Shown piece by piece: positions 2,550 through 28,262 of a stretch of 64,000 bases of DNA; position 1 is the stretch's first letter; each line of letters starts with the position of its first letter. The notes under the pieces are model-generated. The model was not told where the DNA came from and ran no database searches. It saw nothing but the letters and a program-made list of their open reading frames with translations. The position numbers and the translations under genes were made by a program. Origin of the DNA: Maribacter flavus (lineage in GTDB: Bacteria; Bacteroidota; Bacteroidia; Flavobacteriales; Flavobacteriaceae); NCBI RefSeq assembly GCF_008386635.1, contig NZ_VUOE01000002.1, positions 434,001 through 498,000 of the forward strand. The letters are read 5' to 3'.

Positions 2550-2756
2550 TGCTTTCCTTGATGGATACCTTCATACTTCCATGGAAAATTCTTATTTACA
2601 GACATCGTTTTCCATCCCTACCGTTCCGGATGACAGTTTATCCTTCAAATTGTACAATTGGGTAAACCACTTTTTCAAAACCCCTGATAATCCCTGAAAT
2701 TTGATATATCAATAAAAAATAACCGGAAGAAATACATTCCTAAAAATGAAAAAATT

Positions 2757-3035
2757 ATGGAAAATACAAGCGATTACAGATACCGAAGGGCCAAGGAAAA
2801 AGTGGCCGAAATCAAAGGTTTTTATGGCAATTTACTGGCGTATTGCCTCGTCATTCCGTTTTTGATATATATCAACTATCAAACTACCAGTTTTCCCTGG
2901 GCCTTCTTTCCCGCTTTTGGTTGGGGCTTGGGTTTGTTGGGCCATGCGGCCAATGCCTTTGACTATAACCCATTTTTTGGAAAGGACTGGGAACGAAGAA
3001 AATTGGAAGAGTTTATGAAGAACGACGAACTTTAA
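2757..3035 (+). CDS. 2TM domain protein, copy 1
   Basis: A 92-residue protein made only of a 2TM domain (PF13239): a charged amphipathic start (RYRRAKEKVAEIKGFYGNL), two membrane segments joined by a loop with SFPWAFFP, the GWGLGLLGHA motif, and the tail NPFFGKDWERRKLEEFM. It resembles the C-terminal domain of the upstream kinase closely, down to the shared ...IKGFYGNLxAYCxVIPF stretch, which suggests it arose by duplication of that domain. It lies 207 bases after the kinase stop, the largest gap in this cluster. Its biochemical role is unknown. Confidence 0.9.
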   Translation: MENTSDYRYRRAKEKVAEIKGFYGNLLAYCLVIPFLIYINYQTTSFPWAFFPAFGWGLGLLGHAANAFDYNPFFGKDWERRKLEEFMKNDEL

Positions 3036-3083
3036 GGAAAACGGTATCTTTAAGGTAACCGAAGAATCAACAAACGTAACGTC

Positions 3084-3386
3084 ATGAATAACAGAGATCA
3101 AGAATCAAAATACTTTAGGGCCAAGGAACGGGTTGAAAACATAAAAAAGTTTTATACAAGTGCACTATCCTATGTAATCTTCATTGGCTTTTTGGCCGGA
3201 CTAAATTATTGGCTGAACGAATGGAATTATCCGTGGTTTTTGTGGGCCGCTTTCGGGTGGGGCATAGGGCTGGTTTTCCAAGGAGTAAAAGCTTTTGGAT
3301 TTAACCCGATTCTAGGAAAGAATTGGGAAGAACGTAAAATTAACGAACTGATGCGGGAAGAGGAGGAACAAACAAAATGGAAGTAA
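3084..3386 (+). CDS. 2TM domain protein, copy 2
   Basis: A 100-residue 2TM protein. It has the same plan as its neighbours: KYFRAKERVENIKKFYTS, first membrane segment, NYPWFLWAAFGWGIGL, second membrane segment, then NPILGKNWEERKINELM and an acidic end (REEEEQ). It sits 48 bases after copy 1 and its stop overlaps the start of copy 3 (TAATG or a 10-base overlap, depending on the start used), so translation of the two is probably coupled. Its function is unknown; it may interact with the 2TM tail of the kinase. Confidence 0.9.
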   Translation: MNNRDQESKYFRAKERVENIKKFYTSALSYVIFIGFLAGLNYWLNEWNYPWFLWAAFGWGIGLVFQGVKAFGFNPILGKNWEERKINELMREEEEQTKWK

Positions 3387-3721
3387 TGGAAAGAGATCAA
3401 AACAAAATTGAAAGGGCTAAAGAACGGCTTAAGGAACTAAAGGGTTTCTACTGGCATTTGGCTGCATATATTGGAGTGAACACATTTATTACCATTTCCA
3501 CCATCATTGGTAGGATGGGAAGCGGGGCGGATTTTTGGGATGTCCTGGATTTTGGAAGTTTTTCTATCTGGTTTTTTTGGGGCATAGGCCTATTTTTCCA
3601 TGGGATGAAAGTGTTTTCCTATAACCCGCTATTTTCAAAGGAATGGGAGAAACGACAGATTCAGAAATTTATGGAAGAGGATAAGCGTGAAGCTGAAAAA
3701 TTCGGTAGGCATGGAAGGTAG
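3377..3721 (+). CDS. 2TM domain protein, copy 3
   Basis: A 114-residue 2TM protein: IERAKERLKELKGFYWHLAA, a membrane segment, a longer loop than its paralogues (about 15 extra residues containing GRMGSGADFWDVLDFG), IWFFWGIGLFFHGM, then NPLFSKEWEKRQIQKFM and a charged tail. Two starts are possible: ATG 3377, inside the previous gene, or ATG 3386, which overlaps the previous stop as TAATG. The end overlaps the start of copy 4. Its role is unknown. Confidence 0.88.
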   Translation: MEVMERDQNKIERAKERLKELKGFYWHLAAYIGVNTFITISTIIGRMGSGADFWDVLDFGSFSIWFFWGIGLFFHGMKVFSYNPLFSKEWEKRQIQKFMEEDKREAEKFGRHGR

Positions 3722-4133: not shown

Positions 4134-4889
4134 ATGAACGTAATTATTATCGAGGACGAAAAACCGGCTGCCAGAAGACTTGGCCGGTTACTAGGGGAGC
4201 TGGATGTGGCCGTTTCCACAATGTTACATTCGGTGGAGGAATCCATTGCTTGGTTTCAAGAAAACGAGCATCCCGATCTTATTTTTTTGGATATTCAATT
4301 GTCCGATGGTCTTTCCTTTGAAATTTTTGATGCAGTGGATGTAAAAAGTGCCATCATCTTTACAACGGCCTACGATGAATACGCCCTTCAGGCCTTTAAG
4401 CTCAATAGTATAGATTACTTGCTAAAGCCCATTGACGATGAGGAACTGGAGAGCGCCGTAAAAAAATACCGAAACCTAAAACCCGAAGCCAAGAAATTAA
4501 GTTTGGATTTTGAGGATATCAAAAAGCTACTGGTAAATCCGTTGGAGCGTGAGTACAAAAAGCGTTTTACTGCCAGGGTTGGTCAGCATTTAAAGATTAT
4601 AAATGCCGATGAGGTAGAATGCTTCTACAGTGAGAATAAAGGTACATATGCTGCCACTTCAGATGGTAGGAACTATCTACTGGACACCACCTTGGAAAAT
4701 CTGGAGGAGGAACTCAAACCCGATACTTTCTTTAGGGTGAGCCGCAAATTTTACGTGAACATAAACTATATAAAGGACATTATTTCCTACACCAATTCGC
4801 GCTTACAAATCAAACTCAATTCCTTTTCGGAGCAGGAAATCATTGTAAGCCGGGAACGCGTAAAGGATTTTAAGCTGTGGTTGGAGTGA
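4134..4889 (+). CDS. LytTR response regulator
   Basis: A 251-residue two-domain regulator. The receiver (residues 1-120) has the acidic pocket IIIEDE, the phosphoacceptor Asp53 in LIFLDIQLSDG, the switch threonine in FTTAYDEYAL, and the conserved lysine in LLKPID. The C-terminal half (about 150-251) is a LytTR DNA-binding domain, with FYSENKGTYA, RVSRKFYVNINYIKDI and a basic end. It is the obvious partner of the kinase at 1185. LytTR proteins bind pairs of short direct repeats about 21 bases apart; such a pair occurs at 9414-9447 in this window, though that link is only inference. Confidence 0.93.
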   Translation: MNVIIIEDEKPAARRLGRLLGELDVAVSTMLHSVEESIAWFQENEHPDLIFLDIQLSDGLSFEIFDAVDVKSAIIFTTAYDEYALQAFKLNSIDYLLKPIDDEELESAVKKYRNLKPEAKKLSLDFEDIKKLLVNPLEREYKKRFTARVGQHLKIINADEVECFYSENKGTYAATSDGRNYLLDTTLENLEEELKPDTFFRVSRKFYVNINYIKDIISYTNSRLQIKLNSFSEQEIIVSRERVKDFKLWLE

Positions 4890-23800: not shown

Positions 23801-24122
23801 CAAACCAACGTTGGCCCTATACAACGAGTCCATGTACAGTGACGGTTCCTGCTTTGCCAGCGGTTATACCGAATTGAAAATTGGGACTACGGTGGGGATG
23901 CCGGTTCCAGGGACCTGTAGCTTCGCAGGTTGGGAGCGTTTGCCAAACGGAGGCGTTTGGGGCGTGGTGCCCGTTAGTGCCAAGAACAAGGCAGGGGAGT
24001 GGATGGAGAACAATGAGACCGACCCAGATATCCTTGTCAAAAACCAACCCGAGGTCATCGCCAAAGGCCGTGATCAGCAATTGGAAAAATCCATTGAGGT
24101 TTTGATCGGGCAGGTGAAGTAG
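20880..24122 (+). CDS. Tricorn-type protease (S41)
   Basis: A 1080-residue secreted protease with a signal peptide (MRNYLYLLFFSIILF). Two WD40-like propellers follow (residues about 20-560, e.g. YPAISPDGSTVAFTYKGDIY), split by a lysine/glutamate-rich linker at about 575-600, then a core domain with Ser770-His771 in ELNVSHAGG, a PDZ domain, and the S41 domain with VDTRFNGGGDLV. The catalytic Ser987-Asp988 are in MYSDGS, with the probable partner Glu1046. All expected Tricorn active-site residues are present. It likely degrades oligopeptides in the periplasm. An in-frame extension to 20646 is rejected because the leader starts at 20880. Confidence 0.93.
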   Translation: MRNYLYLLFFSIILFNSVFSQEDPKWLRYPAISPDGSTVAFTYKGDIYRVPKEGGVAQQLTFHKAHDYQVVWSKDGDSLAFASNRFGNFDIYVMNAKGGEATRLTFHSNDETPYSFSADDTSVIFGAARQDDVKHRQYPMGQQPELYSVPVIGGRVNQVLTVPAEDVQVNSEGTLMVYHDKKGYENTFRKHHTSAITRDIWKYDVATGTHTKLTSFNGEDRNPVFSDDGNSLYYLSEESGSFNVHTLNLENPENKEQLTSFKTHPVRFLSIGNGIMAFSYDGELYTFEEGGEPQRVDVIIRTQSASNAVEYVSVNGGVREMDISPNGKEIAFISRGEVFATSVDGTMTKRLTNTPEQERFLKYMPDGKAIAYSSERNGKWSIFKTVKQRTEETYFFASTLVKEDTLVTDSTDVYLPEFSPDGNLVAYVEGRRTLKVKNLKTKETVILLTPKDLYHFSDGDQYYQWSPDSKWLLVDWGVTLSNNEILLISADGKTRKNLTESGYYDMQPKWIGEGNQIIWFSNRHGLKSYATSGQSEFDVYTMFLTKDAWDKFNLSKDEYDLMKLIEEGDKKEEDKEENKDEKKKKKKDEDTKEEPVKPLKFDLEGTEDRKSRLTIHSSKLSDAVLSKDGEKLYYLTRFEEDLDLWETEIRTKETKKLLSLGAKSGGLQWDKKQENLFLLADGSISKIDVKAGKKEPVKLKSEMVLDADAERRYMFDHIWLRTNGIFYHSNFHGIDWTAMRTEYEKYLPFIGNNYEFAEMISELLGELNVSHAGGRYNDTIDNGDETASLGIFMDYAHTGNGIKIAEIIKGGPLDKAGFNLKPGMIIEKINGETLLSDRDVASYLNRKEGEFLLLDIIGENKTQKQITVKPISLDAEGDLLYNRWVETNEKEVLEKSKGTLGYVHIPGMSDGPYRSIYEEMMGKFFDKKGVIVDTRFNGGGDLVADLAMFFTGEAFLSYETEDRVVGGEPTSRWTKPTLALYNESMYSDGSCFASGYTELKIGTTVGMPVPGTCSFAGWERLPNGGVWGVVPVSAKNKAGEWMENNETDPDILVKNQPEVIAKGRDQQLEKSIEVLIGQVK

Positions 24123-24146
24123 GCTGGCCATATAACGTACAAGTAA

Positions 24147-24184
24147 GTTATTCTGATCACGCGCATGGCCAAGAAGAAGAATCT
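24147..24184 (+). repeat. 38-bp direct repeat, left copy
   Basis: Begins GTTATTCTGAT and ends GAAGAAGAATCT. It matches the copy at 24707-24744 at 30 of 38 positions in the same orientation; the pair brackets the acetyltransferase gene. The family resembles a TCATTCTGAGCG-type dispersed repeat I recall from bacterial genomes, but that was not checked. Confidence 0.6.
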
Positions 24185-24262
24185 ATTAAAATACCATCAA
24201 GTCCTGGGTTTGGTGCCATAATGAATGAACAACTACAAACTTACCACTTTTAAACGCGTACT

Positions 24263-24679
24263 ATGAACCCAGTGACCAACCTAAAGTCTATACAGGAACT
24301 TTTGAAAGCGAACGACCTGCCCTTTGAAGATTTGGTAGAATCCAAAGTGGCCTTTTTGACCAAGGAAAAAAATGGCGAACTTATTGGATGTATTGGCATC
24401 GAAACATACGAAATGGATGGTTTGCTGCGTTCCTTGGCGGTAGACGATGCCCATAAAGGAAGAGGGGTGGGTAAGGAGTTATTGGACGAACTTTGTGAAA
24501 CCAGTAGGCAAAAAGGTATACAACGATTGCACCTTCTGACCACTACGGCAGATGCCTATTTTAAACGTTATGGTTTTGCTGTAACGGAACGGTCCACCGC
24601 TCCTACGGCCATCCTTGGAACTACCGAATTCTCTGAAATATGCCCTTCCAGTTCCGTGTACATGGTGAAGGAACTTTAA
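24263..24679 (+). CDS. GNAT acetyltransferase, ArsN2-like
   Basis: A 138-residue GNAT protein. The acetyl-CoA loop is in LAVDDAHKGRGVGKELLDEL, followed by the strand LHLLTTTADAYFKRYGF and the ending EFSEICPSSSVYM. These C-terminal motifs fit the ArsN2 subgroup, which is linked to arsenic resistance. No ars genes are next to it, so the substrate is open. The gene stands alone between two 38-bp direct repeats and is transcribed toward the AT-rich island, a setting that suggests it may have been moved as a unit. Confidence 0.85.
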   Translation: MNPVTNLKSIQELLKANDLPFEDLVESKVAFLTKEKNGELIGCIGIETYEMDGLLRSLAVDDAHKGRGVGKELLDELCETSRQKGIQRLHLLTTTADAYFKRYGFAVTERSTAPTAILGTTEFSEICPSSSVYMVKEL

Positions 24680-24706
24680 TTCTATTCCTATTCCTCCCAT
24701 TTTCTT

Positions 24707-24744
24707 GTCATTCTGATGACGAGCGTAGCGAGGAAGAAGCATCT
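24707..24744 (+). repeat. 38-bp direct repeat, right copy
   Basis: Begins GTCATTCTGATGACGAGCGT and ends GAAGAAGCATCT. It is the partner of 24147-24184 (30 of 38 identical) and lies 27 bases after the acetyltransferase stop. Confidence 0.6.
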
Positions 24745-24877
24745 CTTTATTGACCGATCCTCCCCGTTCATTTCAAACAAAACGCTACATATTTACCTTT
24801 CTCTTGCCAAAACCAATAATTTGTAGGATTTTTAGGGTAATCCCTCTAAATTAGAAATATATCAACTTGTTACTATA

Positions 24878-24885
24878 TACATTTG
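24878..24885 (+). promoter_or_regulatory. Bacteroidetes-type -7 box for DUF262 gene
   Basis: TACATTTG matches TAnnTTTG exactly and lies 23 bases before the ATG at 24909. No TTG is found at the proper distance upstream, so the promoter is incomplete or depends on another factor. Confidence 0.4.
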
Positions 24886-24908
24886 TTGGCATTCATTAAA
24901 AATAAACT

Positions 24909-26681
24909 ATGGCAATACTAAGAAAGCTAGATATCAGACCTGAATCCGTTGAATCGATTTACGGCTACTACAGAAAGAAAATGCTCCTTGTCAATAGGAA
25001 ATATCAGAGAAAACTGGTTTGGGGAATCGATGAGAAAGAGAAATTTATTGATAGCATTTACAATGGATTACCCATCCCTTTAATATTAGTAGCAGTTACC
25101 AAATATAAAGACAGTACTGTCTACGAGATAATTGATGGCATGCAAAGATTAAATGCAATTGTTTCATTTATTCAAAATGAAGTCCACTTAGGAGGAAAAT
25201 ACTTTAATCTTGAAACCCTAGCATTAACAAAAGCTCTAAAAGACAAAGGGAAAATCGAACAGAAAGAGCCGAAACTTTCAATTGAAGAGTGTCTTGAAAT
25301 AACCTCATATCAATTACCATTTTCTATATCATCATATGACAAGGAGGCTGATATTGAAGAAATTTTTAGGCGTATTAACTCTTACGGAAAAACTTTATCC
25401 AGCCATGAACTAAGACAGGCCGGATCAACTGGAACTTTTACTCAAATAGTTAGAGATTTAGCCGAGAATATAAGAAAAGATGTATCGCCTTCAGATAAAA
25501 TTCTTCTTGGCAACATGCGGAGAATAAGCCTTAGTAATCGAGGTTTAAAATATGGCATAGACCTTAGGGATGTCTTTTGGCACAAACAAAGTATTCTAAC
25601 AGAAAACAATATTCGAGCATCTCGGGATGAAGAAATAATTGCTCATTTAGTAATTGCGATGTTATTGGATTATGACATCAATATTAGTTCTACATCACTA
25701 GATAGAGCTTATGGCTTAAGCGATGACAACGAGGAGAACATCGATACTTCAGAGCTAATTAAAAGATATGGTGGGCCAGAGTTTATAAAACTCCAGTTTG
25801 AATCAATATTTCAAGAAATTCAGAACACTTTGGACGCATACAAATTCAATTTCAGAACACTACTATTTCGTGAGCCTAGCAAATACATGAATAATGCATT
25901 TCAGGCAATATTTTTGTCCTTCCATAACCTTTTGGTTAAAGAGCAATTGAAAATTGATAACTATAGAGAATTAAACAAAGAACTTAATGGAATTGGTGAC
26001 AAATACATCACTCCACATATTGAAGAAATTAGACATAGAGCGGCAAGGAAGAGAGTAATAGATTCCATTTCAGGTGTTCTTCGCAAACACTTCTCAAAAA
26101 GGGAAGAAACTGACCCTGCATTGTCTAATGGAGTTGTTAAACTAGAAAGCTTGTTATCCGCATCAAAAACAGAAAACTCATCCTATGACTTTAAACAAGG
26201 GTTTTATCAGATGGACAAGGAGAATAAGAACATTAAAGAAAAGGTTTTAAGAACTCTTTGCTCATTCGTCAACCTTGGAAGAAATGCAGTTGGATATGTA
26301 GTTATTGGAGTGGCTGACACCAAACACATGGCAAGTCAATTTGAAAAGTATTATGGCGAAAAATCACTGCAATTCAATGACTTTTTCATAAATGGAATTG
26401 ATGCTGAATGCCAAAAAAGATATAAAAGTCTGGACGAATACCGGACTAAGTTTGAGCAACTAGTTAGGTCAAGTGATATTCAACCAGAATACTATAAATC
26501 GCAGATTCTGAAAAACATTGATTTATTTACCTACCGAGATAAATCAGTAATGATTTTGAAAATTGAATCGAAAGATGATCCATTGAAACTTAATGGAAAG
26601 TTTTACCATCGTCAGGGAACAAGTACGGAGGAAGTTCCCTCTTCATCTGAAAGAGAACTTTGGGGTTTATTCTTAAAATAA
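24909..26681 (+). CDS. DUF262-AlbA_2 fusion, candidate defence protein
   Basis: A 590-residue protein. The N-terminal part (about 20-200) is a DUF262/GmrSD-type domain: NRKYQRKLVWGIDEKEKFID, the ParB-like IIDGMQRLNAIV, and IFRRINSYGKTLSSHELRQA. A helical middle follows (about 200-395). The C-terminal part (about 400-590) looks like an AlbA_2/Schlafen-type nucleic-acid-binding domain: ESLLSASKTENSSYDFKQGF and NLGRNAVGYVVIGVAD. The DUF1524 HNH nuclease that usually accompanies DUF262 in GmrSD enzymes is not seen. DUF262 proteins include modified-DNA restriction enzymes and phage-defence factors, so a defence role is inferred. The gene is clearly more AT-rich than its neighbours and stands alone, which points to transfer. 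Confidence 0.8.
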   Translation: MAILRKLDIRPESVESIYGYYRKKMLLVNRKYQRKLVWGIDEKEKFIDSIYNGLPIPLILVAVTKYKDSTVYEIIDGMQRLNAIVSFIQNEVHLGGKYFNLETLALTKALKDKGKIEQKEPKLSIEECLEITSYQLPFSISSYDKEADIEEIFRRINSYGKTLSSHELRQAGSTGTFTQIVRDLAENIRKDVSPSDKILLGNMRRISLSNRGLKYGIDLRDVFWHKQSILTENNIRASRDEEIIAHLVIAMLLDYDINISSTSLDRAYGLSDDNEENIDTSELIKRYGGPEFIKLQFESIFQEIQNTLDAYKFNFRTLLFREPSKYMNNAFQAIFLSFHNLLVKEQLKIDNYRELNKELNGIGDKYITPHIEEIRHRAARKRVIDSISGVLRKHFSKREETDPALSNGVVKLESLLSASKTENSSYDFKQGFYQMDKENKNIKEKVLRTLCSFVNLGRNAVGYVVIGVADTKHMASQFEKYYGEKSLQFNDFFINGIDAECQKRYKSLDEYRTKFEQLVRSSDIQPEYYKSQILKNIDLFTYRDKSVMILKIESKDDPLKLNGKFYHRQGTSTEEVPSSSERELWGLFLK

Positions 26682-26686
26682 CGAAA

Positions 26687-26746
26687 TGCCAACAACACCT
26701 ATACGCAATACCCTTCGGGACACTGGACATACCCAAACCGTTAGCA
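26687..26746. repeat. attC-like imperfect palindrome
   Basis: A 60-base element with ends TGCCAACA and CGTTAGCA, which are reverse complements except for two positions, and a small CCCTTCGGG hairpin inside. The ends resemble the R-box form (YAAC...GTTR) of integron attC sites. It starts 5 bases after the DUF262 fusion stop and ends 10 bases before the next gene, as expected for a cassette junction. No integrase gene is present in the window. Confidence 0.4.
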
Positions 26747-26756
26747 AACATATTAC

Positions 26757-27263
26757 ATGAGACTTTCAGCATTATTAAGTGTTTGTCTATTATTATGGAG
26801 CTGCAATTCAGAACCGATAGAGCCATTTGAATTGTCACTTCAAGATTTTAATTACGCTTCGGCCTACTCAAAAGTATATTCAATATCAAATGAAGGAATG
26901 AAGGTTGTTTTCAAAGGTGAATTAGAAAATGAATCGGATAGAATTTTATTTACATCAATTGATATTCCAACTAAGAACTTAAAAAGGCTTTCTCAAATCG
27001 ATTTCGACAATCTAAAAGCAGTCTATTCAAATCAATGTGTGCTAGATGGGGATATAAAGTTGTTCACCTACAAAAAGAAAGACACATTAAAAAATGTTTT
27101 AGTTGAAAATTACTTTCATGAAGAACTTAGCCCAGCAATTGATATTATTAACGAATTAGTTCCAAGAGAACATCAGCTTCTATATGATGAGAAGGAAATT
27201 AAGGAGCTTATGAAGGGTTGTGAAGAAATATTAATAATGGAGACCTTTCCTGATTTCAAATAA
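26757..27263 (+). CDS. Orphan lipoprotein in AT-rich island
   Basis: A 168-residue protein with a short lipoprotein leader (MRLSALLSVCLLLWSC). The mature part has strands (GMKVVFKGELENESDRILF), a charged middle with YKKKDTLKNVLV, and ends in helices (EKEIKELMKGCEEILIM). I do not recognise a family. It is AT-rich like the DUF262 fusion. Palindromic elements flank it on both sides, so it could be a mobile cassette unrelated to the upstream gene. Confidence 0.65.
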   Translation: MRLSALLSVCLLLWSCNSEPIEPFELSLQDFNYASAYSKVYSISNEGMKVVFKGELENESDRILFTSIDIPTKNLKRLSQIDFDNLKAVYSNQCVLDGDIKLFTYKKKDTLKNVLVENYFHEELSPAIDIINELVPREHQLLYDEKEIKELMKGCEEILIMETFPDFK

Positions 27264-27275
27264 AATAAATACGTT

Positions 27276-27356
27276 TACCAACAACGGTAACCGTTTCACA
27301 AGCCACTGACCCCGCCTGTACCTAACTGTACGTTCGGGTGGGTTCTTAAAATAGTT
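27276..27356. repeat. Second attC-like or terminator-like palindrome region
   Basis: It opens TACCAACAACGG, close to the start of the element at 26687, and contains AACGGT-A-ACCGTT, then an imperfect stem between GACCCCGCC and GGGTGGGTTC with GTAC/GTAC inside. The expected right end GTTAGC is missing. It could be a truncated cassette site or a terminator; it marks the right limit of the AT-rich island. Confidence 0.35.
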
Positions 27357-27375
27357 TTGTGCACTTTTCGCACAC

Positions 27376-28038
27376 TCAAGCGAGTTCATACAAGTATGTT
27401 TTAATAACCCCTTTTCCGCTTATTTCGGGTATCGACACCAATTCATTCACTTCCTTAACCTTTAATAGAAAGGGTGGTGCCAACAAATCCACACCGCTCT
27501 GCTTTTTGAGTCGGATGCTCTGTCCGGAGATTATATCAATGTTGGGTTCAAAGTCACCTTCGGGTAGGTGTTCCGTTACTAGTACGTACGTGTAGTTTGA
27601 TAGTTTTTTGACTATCGCCTTTATTTCCTCATTGGAAAGGTGTTGCAAAACCTGCCGAAGGATGATGCAGTCGGCTTTGGGAAGGTTATCCTTGGCAATG
27701 TCCAAACAGTGAAAGCTCACATGCTCCAATGCATTGTTCTTTTTATGCCATCCGATGAGGTCCTCCACAATATCTACGGCAATATATTCCCGGGAGTACG
27801 GTACAAGTCGTTTACCAATAGTAAAATCCCCACATCCCAAATCGCAAACCGTTAATGGGGGATGGAAGGAACCTAAAAAATGGGTAACCGCTTTCAGATA
27901 CGGTTCCACCATTGCTGGTTCGTGCGACCCATCACCACTGTAAAATTCGCCAGGATTCCCGCCCCAAAGGTTTTGCTCGTAAATCTGCTCCATCACGGCT
28001 TTTGTGGGCCATGGTTTTTTAGTTTTTTTGATGGGCAT
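27376..28038 (-). CDS. Class I SAM-dependent methyltransferase
   Basis: A 220-residue methyltransferase: the basic start MPIKKTKKPWPTKAVMEQIY, FYSGDGSHEPAMVEPYLKAV, the SAM-binding TVCDLGCGDFTIGKRLV, motif II IAVDIVEDLI, the acidic DCIILRQVLQHLSNEE, and VLVTEHLPEGDF. The layout suggests a small-molecule or glycan methyltransferase, but the substrate is not evident. It is the first normal-composition gene after the AT-rich island and is separated from the amidohydrolase by a 225-base low-complexity gap. Confidence 0.85.
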   Translation of the reverse strand: MPIKKTKKPWPTKAVMEQIYEQNLWGGNPGEFYSGDGSHEPAMVEPYLKAVTHFLGSFHPPLTVCDLGCGDFTIGKRLVPYSREYIAVDIVEDLIGWHKKNNALEHVSFHCLDIAKDNLPKADCIILRQVLQHLSNEEIKAIVKKLSNYTYVLVTEHLPEGDFEPNIDIISGQSIRLKKQSGVDLLAPPFLLKVKEVNELVSIPEISGKGVIKTYLYELA

Positions 28039-28045
28039 GGGAGGT

Positions 28046-28262
28046 TGGTTGTTAGATTTCTAGGGAGTTAGTGAGTTAGTGAATTAGTGAGACAGTGAAT
28101 TAGTTGTTTTTAAGTCTAACTTCTCAAATCTAACGTCTTAGATCTAACTTTTCATTTTTCATTTTCCGCTAAACGCTAAACGCTAAAAGCCAGAAACTAA
28201 CAGCTATTCACTTTTAGTTTTTCAATTTTCACTCTTCACTCTTAATTCTGCACTCTTCACTC
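28046..28262. repeat. Low-complexity mosaic repeat, copy 2
   Basis: The whole gap consists of short repeats: GTTAGTGA/ATTAGTGA units at 28067-28105, CTAAACG twice near 28170-28185, and CACTCTT units at 28230-28268. Bases 28209-28242 match the inverse of 4894-4927 at 28 of 34 positions. No regulatory site is obvious. Confidence 0.65.

What the first reader, a model, noticed from the sequence alone, without database searches (positions are those of the whole stretch)
24909..26681. DUF262 fused to an AlbA_2-like domain without the HNH nuclease
GmrSD-type enzymes pair DUF262 with a DUF1524 nuclease. Here the C-terminus is instead an AlbA_2/Schlafen-like domain. It is a single AT-rich gene in a foreign-looking island, so a one-gene phage-defence system that recognises nucleic acid through AlbA_2 is plausible and poorly described.
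Basis: partly seen in the sequence, partly recalled or inferred. Interest (0 to 1): 0.7.

Follow-up and report, generated by a model that had tools for sequence, protein, structure and literature searches.

The report
Integron-borne DUF262–Schlafen immune protein candidate
A single mobile bacterial gene joins a phage-sensing type of domain to a domain resembling the RNA-cutting parts of animal antiviral proteins, and some of its relatives sit where prophages and integrons keep phage-defence genes, so it is probably a one-gene defence system that has not been characterised.

Summary
ORF 24909-26681 (590 aa) is DUF262/GmrSD_N (residues 22-171) plus SLFN_AlbA_2 (422-576), with no DUF1524/HNH. In 31 aligned homologues the AlbA_2 part keeps three carboxylates at Schlafen-RNase positions (E422, D/E427, D/E470) and invariant K429. 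The predicted fold (pLDDT 86.6) matches BrxU and, more weakly, SAMD9 tRNase and Schlafens. So AlbA_2 is more likely the RNase effector and DUF262 the NTP-dependent sensor. The "island" is two integron gene cassettes. The 5' boundary GTTGGCATT exactly complements the attC R'' box AATGCCAAC; 4 of the 6 closest homologues (window included) pass this test, 0 of 26 other loci do. The same genome has a chromosomal integron. Homologues lie within 85 nt of a P2-type portal gene in 10 of 36 viral contigs, one side of the old/tin anti-phage hotspot, and on many E. coli plasmids. In L003 the next cassette is a PADLOC defence candidate. Defence, RNase activity and tRNA as target are inferred. My searches found no paper on this fusion, but a preprint on bacterial Schlafens could not be read.

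The parts
24909..26681 (+). CDS, 590 aa, DUF262 (GmrSD_N) - helical middle - SLFN_AlbA_2 fusion
24972..25421 (+). DUF262 / GmrSD_N domain (residues 22-171)
   Evidence: Pfam PF03235, E 1.5e-23
25134..25148 (+). NTP-site motif D76-G-M-Q-R80 (canonical GmrSD motif DGQQR)
   Evidence: D, G, Q, R invariant in 31 of 31; position 78 M or L; motif meaning from PMC10952713 passages
26172..26636 (+). SLFN_AlbA_2 domain (residues 422-576), probable RNase effector
   Evidence: Pfam PF04326, E 3.2e-10; fold matches to SAMD9 tRNase and Schlafens (the table does not show which residues align, placement on this domain is inferred)
26172..26195 (+). E422-x4-D427-x-K429: first two carboxylates and lysine of the Schlafen-type active site
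   Evidence: E422 and K429 invariant, 427 D/E in 31 of 31; SLFN13 E205/E210; SAMD9 E196/K198
26316..26318 (+). D470: third carboxylate
   Evidence: D 27, E 4 of 31; SLFN13 D248, SAMD9 D241, matched by spacing
24848..24888 (+). attI-like site immediately upstream of the gene, ending in the GTT core
   Evidence: same block begins 7 nt (own genome) and 5 nt (G001) after an integrase stop codon; aligned in 8 loci, degenerate in L055 and L086
24885..24893 (+). 5' cassette boundary GTTGGCATT
   Evidence: exact complement of the attC R'' box; 2 of 500 resampled flanks reach 9 nt; letters rechecked
24886..26740 (+). integron gene cassette 1 (carries the DUF262-AlbA_2 gene)
   Evidence: left homology to G030 ends at 24888, attC homology to G009 ends at 26742
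26685..26746 (+). attC site of cassette 1 (R'' AATGCCAAC ... R' GTTAGCA)
   Evidence: aligned with attC sites of own and related integrons; R boxes good, only 3 of 6 L-box pairs form in this copy
26741..27293 (+). cassette 2: 168-aa ORF 26757-27263 with lipoprotein-like N-terminus, and a shortened terminal attC
   Evidence: same gene in G029 and G006 at other loci (3 of 35 genus genomes incl. own); R'' exact in L057, 2 of 10 mismatches here

Best explanation
The gene is a mobile, single-protein anti-phage immune factor carried as an integron gene cassette. Its DUF262 (ParB/Srx-type NTPase) half and helical middle part probably sense an infection cue; modified phage DNA is the precedent from GmrSD, BrxU and SspE. 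NTP turnover then releases or positions the C-terminal Schlafen/AlbA_2 domain, a metal-dependent RNase with triad E422/D427/D470, which cleaves RNA, most likely tRNA, and stops translation so that the phage cannot replicate. Shown here: domain content, conserved residues, predicted fold, cassette structure, and homologues beside defence genes or in anti-phage hotspots. Inferred: the defence function, the trigger, RNase activity, tRNA as substrate, and coupling by NTP.
For: (1) Domains. (2) After residue 400 the only always-acidic columns in 31 sequences are 422, 427, 470, 500 and 509; the first three have Schlafen triad order and spacing (5 and 43, against 5 and 38 in SLFN13); K429 invariant. 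SAMD9 tRNase uses E196, K198 and D241 among others. (3) AF2 pLDDT 86.6, pTM 0.79; Foldseek hits BrxU 7p9k (E 3.6e-4), SAMD9 7ksp_B, 9o0d_C and 9o0d_A (prob 1.00, E 0.02-0.06), and SLFN11, 13, 5, 12, 14 chains. (4) Context: integron cassette; 10 of 36 viral contigs have the portal gene within 85 nt and one more at 522 nt, the gpQ side of the A-Q interval that PMC9122126 describes as holding old/tin and a hotspot of anti-phage systems; E. coli prophage copy between baseplate V and virion morphogenesis genes; next cassette in L003 matches PADLOC PDC-S49, E 1.8e-130; Klebsiella plasmid copy near TIR and Lit-family genes. (5) DUF262 without DUF1524 occurs in anti-phage systems with other effectors (PD-T4-2, Menshen, Dazbog).
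Against: No activity was measured. Only 2 Foldseek PDB hits reach E<=0.001, both BrxU; SAMD9 hits have high probability but weak E, Schlafen hits modest to low probability, and whole-chain TM is low. I could not inspect side-chain geometry in the model. Two of 31 members have no AlbA_2 match at E<=0.01. Some AlbA_2 proteins are thought to be regulators rather than nucleases (recalled). 25 of 36 viral contigs show no portal gene in the fetched flanks, and the gpA side was not checked. The neighbour scan had no control, so enrichment is not shown. The window's own neighbours are ordinary genes.
Confidence: 0.6

Rival explanations
1. One reading: AlbA_2 binds phage nucleic acid as the recognition part and DUF262 (ParB/Srx fold, NTPase and possibly nuclease) is the effector.
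For: Some AlbA_2 proteins bind nucleic acid (recalled; PGAP labels the IS-split E. coli half 'RNA-binding domain-containing protein'). ParB/Srx proteins can nick DNA (PMC12839542 passage).
Against: The three Schlafen-type carboxylates and the lysine are kept in 31 of 31 rows, which mere binding would not obviously require; in GmrSD, BrxU and SspE, DUF262 acts as NTPase upstream of a separate nuclease.
Confidence: 0.15
2. A plasmid/prophage/integron stabilisation or inter-element competition factor (toxin-like, addiction or exclusion of other mobile elements) rather than phage defence proper.
For: E. coli plasmid copies viewed lie beside the pemIK toxin-antitoxin module; integrons carry toxin-antitoxin cassettes (PMC8618304 passage), and own integron has a HigB toxin gene with an HTH gene next to it; PMC8544851, on plasmid fitness costs, holds the word DUF262 once (search listing only).
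Against: The window cassette holds no second gene for an antitoxin; relatives lie at the portal side of the P2 anti-phage hotspot.
Confidence: 0.15
3. A type IV restriction enzyme in which the AlbA_2 domain has replaced HNH as the DNA-cutting part.
For: Same DUF262 family as GmrSD; BrxU is the top fold hit.
Against: The corresponding triad is an RNase site in SLFN13 and SAMD9; no His is conserved in >=70% of rows.
Confidence: 0.06

Closest known systems
phrog_26759 (PHROGs, unknown function)
   Same: Full-length match, residues 12-574 to profile 9-578 of 593, E 4.8e-82; by that match the same protein family, from viruses of bacteria/archaea.
   Different: No function assigned there.
GmrSD / BrxU / SspE (DUF262 + DUF1524)
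   Same: N-terminal DUF262 with D-G-x-Q-R motif; BrxU best fold hit.
   Different: No DUF1524/HNH; third motif position M or L instead of Q; Schlafen-type C-terminus.
Menshen NsnA and PD-T4-2 component A (PADLOC)
   Same: DUF262 without DUF1524, in anti-phage systems with OLD (Menshen) or HEPN (PD-T4-2) partners.
   Different: Matches do not reach the AlbA_2 part (1.4e-27, residues 10-360; 5e-20, residues 16-187); here the effector is fused and the unit is one gene.
SAMD9/SAMD9L tRNase and Schlafen (SLFN11/13/14) RNases of animals
   Same: AlbA_2-type fold with acidic residues plus lysine; in SAMD9 joined to an NTPase-containing, NLR-like protein.
   Different: Only the nuclease domain is related; the sensor here is DUF262; identity 9-17% in the fold hits.
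Chromosomal integron gene cassettes
   Same: 5' boundary, attC with covarying boxes, attI-like site, integrase elsewhere in the genome.
   Different: No integrase directly at this locus (cassettes at a solo attI-like site); the genome's integrase points the same way as its cassettes with the attI-like site after its stop codon.

Membership tests
GmrSD type IV restriction enzymes | N-terminal DUF262 domain | tested here: met
   PF03235 31 of 31
GmrSD type IV restriction enzymes | (I/V)DGQQR motif | tested here: inconclusive
   DG[M/L]QR: D, G, second Q and R invariant, first Q in 0 of 31
GmrSD type IV restriction enzymes | DUF1524 / HNH nuclease | tested here: not met
   not among the 7 Pfam families matched by 31 members at E<=0.01; no His conserved in >=70%
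GmrSD type IV restriction enzymes | cleaves modified DNA | not testable with these tools
   needs biochemistry
Schlafen/AlbA_2 RNases | SLFN_AlbA_2 domain | tested here: met
   41 bits against cut-off 25.3; 29 of 31 at E<=0.01
Schlafen/AlbA_2 RNases | three-carboxylate triad | tested here: met
   422, 427, 470 acidic in 31 of 31, matched by order and spacing; geometry not inspected
Schlafen/AlbA_2 RNases | RNA/tRNA cleavage | not testable with these tools
   needs biochemistry
Integron gene cassette | 5' boundary complementary to own attC R'' box | tested here: met
   9 nt exact; reached by 2 of 500 resampled flanks
Integron gene cassette | attC with paired R and L boxes | tested here: inconclusive
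   set of 23 sites 93.7% paired, covariation score reached by 0 of 500 shuffles; in the window copy R boxes are good but 3 of 6 L-box pairs form
Integron gene cassette | integron integrase available | tested here: inconclusive
   375-aa recombinase in same genome passes NF040815 (243.6 against 220) but not TIGR02249 (212.6 against 265); none of the listed own-genome matches lies in the window, list cut
Menshen / PD-T4-2 | partner genes of the system next door | tested here: not met
   six neighbouring genes scanned with PADLOC: one match, mad2 1.2e-9 to a methyltransferase; three nearest also with Pfam

The most novel reading that the evidence does not exclude
A widespread, uncharacterised class of one-protein bacterial immune sensor: a DUF262 NTPase that detects infection and fires a fused Schlafen/SAMD9-like tRNase, giving bacteria a counterpart of SAMD9/SLFN11 antiviral logic. 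It moves between phyla as integron cassettes, P2-like prophage cargo and plasmid cargo.
Probability: 0.5. Interest if true: 0.78.

Novelty: new variant of a known kind. Interest (0 to 1): 0.6.

Why it matters
DUF262 proteins are usually filed as type IV restriction enzymes, and NCBI labels E. coli copies of this family 'GmrSD restriction endonuclease domain-containing protein'. If the family ends in an RNase, that label misleads for a family of which 803 of 5426 E. coli genomes carry at least a piece and 105 carry 80% or more. The same DUF262 sensor would then be plugged into DNA-cutting and RNA-cutting effectors alike. It would tie bacterial immunity to the Schlafen/SAMD9 antiviral RNases of animals, and would add Bacteroidota integrons to the places where defence genes are stored and exchanged.

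Tried and rejected
A natural two-gene split (G078, L091/L093) looked like support for separable parts. It was rejected: the gap of about 130 nt is bounded by inverted repeats (read by eye), so it looks like a small element inserted at the linker.

Rfam scan of 24000-28200 gave one match, below its gathering score. First AF2 run with 6 close sequences was unusable (pLDDT 36.4). phmmer against PDB found nothing at E<=1; the A3 profile against PDB had best E 0.085, BrxU. First viral scan with the single sequence found no relatives; the alignment scan found 36.

The leader repeat 24811-24847 was first read as part of attI. Parts of it also occur without the attI block upstream of other genes in G006, so I treat it as a separate repeat. 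PADLOC scan of 128 neighbour ORFs from 34 homologue loci gave 26 families (25 shown), each in 1-2 members: suggestive, no control, not used as enrichment.

Literature: searches for DUF262 + AlbA_2 (0 papers), DUF262 + Schlafen (1; passages read, not this fusion), DUF262 + integron (10; of these, passages of PMC4619093, PMC12409362, PMC3710099 and PMC11980606 were seen), and a six-term search (8). In passages read, PMC4619093 lists DUF4268, DUF4357 and DNA_binding_1 as extra domains, with 0 hits for PF04326; PMC12373910 surveys 20 GmrSD clusters of Enterobacteria, with 0 hits for AlbA or RNA-binding in its main text; supplements were not read. [quoted passage not shown]

Full report
OBSERVATION. 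The ORF 24909-26681 on the + strand encodes 590 aa. Pfam finds GmrSD_N (DUF262) at residues 22-171 (E 1.5e-23) and SLFN_AlbA_2 at 422-576 (E 3.2e-10), both above their curated cut-offs, with no DUF1524 or HNH family at E<=1. The two good PADLOC matches do not reach the AlbA_2 part: NsnA 1.4e-27 (residues 10-360) and PD-T4-2_A 5e-20 (residues 16-187). NCBIfam gives nothing at E<=1. PHROGs gives a full-length match to phrog_26759, E 4.8e-82, function unknown. The architecture is therefore real and recurrent. GC is 0.343 and GC3 0.302, against GC 0.42-0.48 in the seven non-cassette genes measured.

THE PROTEIN FAMILY. Full-length relatives at 65-77% identity were found in five Bacteroidota records (L001-L005). 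In plasmids, 145 of 1524 matching records cover at least 80% of the query; the best rows are at 35-37% identity. In viral contigs, 36 loci encode a relative. A sampled phylum search found a match at E<=1e-30 in 4 of 395 genomes, the own genome included, and none of 35 same-genus genomes has a full-length one, so within Bacteroidota the gene is rare and patchy. Alignment A3 holds 31 sequences: the query, L001-L005 and 25 of the 36 viral loci. All 31 match GmrSD_N and 29 match SLFN_AlbA_2 at E<=0.01; no HNH-type family appears.

CONSERVED RESIDUES. In A3 the DUF262 motif reads D76-G77-[M/L]-Q79-R80, with D, G, Q and R invariant; in GmrSD proteins (I/V)DGQQR is described as the NTP pocket (PMC10952713, passages). 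After residue 400 only five columns are acidic in all 31 rows: 422 (E), 427 (D 12, E 19), 470 (D 27, E 4), 500 and 509; K429 is invariant; no His column reaches 70%. The same holds in A1, 13 sequences with plasmid, prophage and distant members. SLFN13 uses E205, E210 and D248, and E205A and E210A were inactive (PMC5862951, passages). SAMD9 uses E196, K198 and D241 among others (PMC12331169, passages). Order and spacing agree (5 and 43 residues here, 5 and 38 in SLFN13). This equivalence rests on spacing and the Pfam match, not on a superposition.

FOLD. AF2 with A3 gave pLDDT 86.6 and pTM 0.79. Foldseek against PDB has only two hits at E<=0.001, both BrxU. Next come 3lmm, ParB/Noc chains, SAMD9 (7ksp_B, 9o0d_C and 9o0d_A at probability 1.00, E 0.02-0.06; 9o0d_D at 0.87, E 0.15) and SLFN11, 13, 5, 12 and 14 at lower probability. 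Against predicted viral proteins, GmrSD N-terminal-domain proteins lead. The picture is a GmrS-like front and a Schlafen/SAMD9-like back.

HOW IT MOVES. Synteny with the same-genus genome G030, which has other genes at this place, runs from before the GNAT gene to 24888 with a short gap and resumes at 27437 in the methyltransferase. The left break falls at the GTT core (24885-24887). A 54-nt element just after the stop codon (26689-26742) recurs in G009 after an unrelated gene and also ends at GTT. This is the anatomy of an integron gene cassette. A test made for it asks whether the 5' boundary starting at GTT is the exact complement of the R'' box ending in AAC after the stop. It gives 9 nt for the window (reached by 2 of 500 first-order resampled flanks), and 9, 13 and 9 nt for L001, L002 and L003 (0, 1 and 0 of 500). 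L004 and L005 fail with 3 and 5 nt. The other 26 loci tested (plasmid, prophage, distant) give 0-7 nt, though three of them (L113, L115, L122) also had fractions of 0.01, 0.022 and 0.002 at 7, 7 and 6 nt. So 4 of the 6 closest proteins are cassettes by this test and none of the 26 others reaches 9 nt.

THE GENOME'S OWN INTEGRON. The same genome holds, at C2:996.5 kb, a 375-aa tyrosine recombinase followed by a run of co-directional genes, many separated by attC-like elements (L083); a relative, G001, has the same layout (L085). The recombinase passes NF040815 (243.6 against 220) but not TIGR02249 (212.6 against 265). Of five cassette proteins scanned, Pfam names a HigB toxin, an HTH protein beside it, a CoiA N-terminal domain and a metallo-beta-lactamase fold; one has no match. 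Twenty-three attC sites, the window's included, were aligned. Most were picked with a pattern that asks for AAC, TAT and GTT, so those invariant cores are partly by selection. The three outer L-box pairs were not asked for, and they carry the covariation: overall 93.7% of cells pair, with a covariation score of 0.191 against 0.069 for shuffles (0 of 500 as high) and 0.002-0.057 when slid. In the window copy 3 of 6 L-box pairs form, so this copy may be partly decayed. The block before the gene also begins 7 nt after the integrase stop in the own genome and 5 nt after it in G001, and it occurs at further loci without an integrase directly before it. I read it as an attI-like site; the window locus is then a small cassette cluster without its own integrase.

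HOTSPOTS ELSEWHERE. In viral contigs the gene lies 39-85 nt from a P2-type portal gene in 10 of 36 (three of these, L111, L112 and L132, carry an identical gene) and 522 nt from it in one more; 25 of 36 show no portal within the fetched flanks, and the gpA side was not checked. The A-Q interval of P2-like phages holds old and tin and is a hotspot of anti-phage systems (PMC9122126, passages; its main text has no hit for DUF262, GmrSD, AlbA or Schlafen). In E. coli a second variant matches over at least 80% of its length in 28 of 5426 genomes, all on chromosomes; one of the 12 rows shown is interrupted by IS1. Two annotated regions were viewed: in one the intact gene sits in a P2-like prophage between baseplate V and virion morphogenesis genes, in the other the annotated gene is shorter (1386 nt) and the prophage is reduced. 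On E. coli plasmids the first variant gives any match in 803 of 5426 genomes and 80% or more in 105 (the 803 include 28 chromosomal places); copies viewed lie beside pemIK. Six of 12 evenly spaced rows end at nucleotide 1284 and three hold only 1276-1773; one annotated case shows IS1B in between. The C-terminal half is thus often cut off, which fits a costly effector but proves nothing. A Klebsiella plasmid copy has a TIR-domain gene and a Lit-family gene nearby. In L003 the next cassette, after a clear attC, encodes a KAP NTPase matching PADLOC candidate PDC-S49, E 1.8e-130. Against this, six genes around the window gene gave one weak PADLOC match.

MECHANISM. The best reading is a one-protein immune factor. 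DUF262 plus the middle region senses and hydrolyses NTP, as in BrxU and SspE, where NTP use and recognition control a C-terminal nuclease. The AlbA_2 domain is the effector and cuts RNA, most likely tRNA by analogy with SLFN13 and SAMD9. Known DUF262 systems without DUF1524 pair with other effectors: HEPN in PD-T4-2 and OLD/TOPRIM in Menshen, and a predicted BECR RNase in the candidate operon ptuXYZ (PMC11980606, passage). A direct fusion to a Schlafen-type RNase fits that modular logic. Every functional step is inferred.

NOVELTY. In the literature held I found no description of this fusion (searches; passages), but one relevant preprint could not be read and newer defence catalogues may contain it. 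I rate it a new variant of a known kind: known sensor, known nuclease fold, combination and mobility not found described.

Noticed in passing
own genome G000:C2:996528-1010500 (L083:1029-15001): Chromosomal integron with the integrase gene pointing the same way as its cassettes and the attI-like site right after its stop codon; includes four near-identical ~450-nt repeats (L083:2282-2660, 2733-3111, 3184-3562, 4250-4628) that look like gene-less cassettes.
   Followed up: partly
window 24811-24888; L053, L055, L084, L086: Solo attI-like sites preceded by a conserved ~40-nt leader recur at several loci without an integrase directly before them; in G006 one (degenerate) stands directly before another DUF262 gene, L086:5022-6305.
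   Followed up: partly
window 26757-27263: 168-aa protein with lipoprotein-like start, a second cassette; same gene in 3 of 35 genus genomes (own included) at different loci; no Pfam match at E<=1.
   Followed up: partly
window ~27286-27302; L053 ~5320; L057 ~160-185: A short element GGT(T)AACCGTT(G/T)CACAAG follows the last gene of the insert in three places; it may be a truncated terminal attC or a fixed end site.
   Followed up: no
L134 and other E. coli plasmid records: IS1B splits the homologue near residue 426-428 with a 9-nt overlap, leaving a DUF262-only ORF on many plasmids.
   Followed up: partly
L091:1375-1507 (G078): Small element with inverted-repeat ends inserted in the linker before the AlbA_2 domain of a homologue.
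   Followed up: yes
G006, e.g. C1:1486563-1487381: Eight places in one genome hold a 298-aa IntI-like recombinase frame with the same score, in the copy viewed followed by a transposase-like gene (L086:2894-4024, recognised by eye); looks like a multicopy transposon.
   Followed up: no
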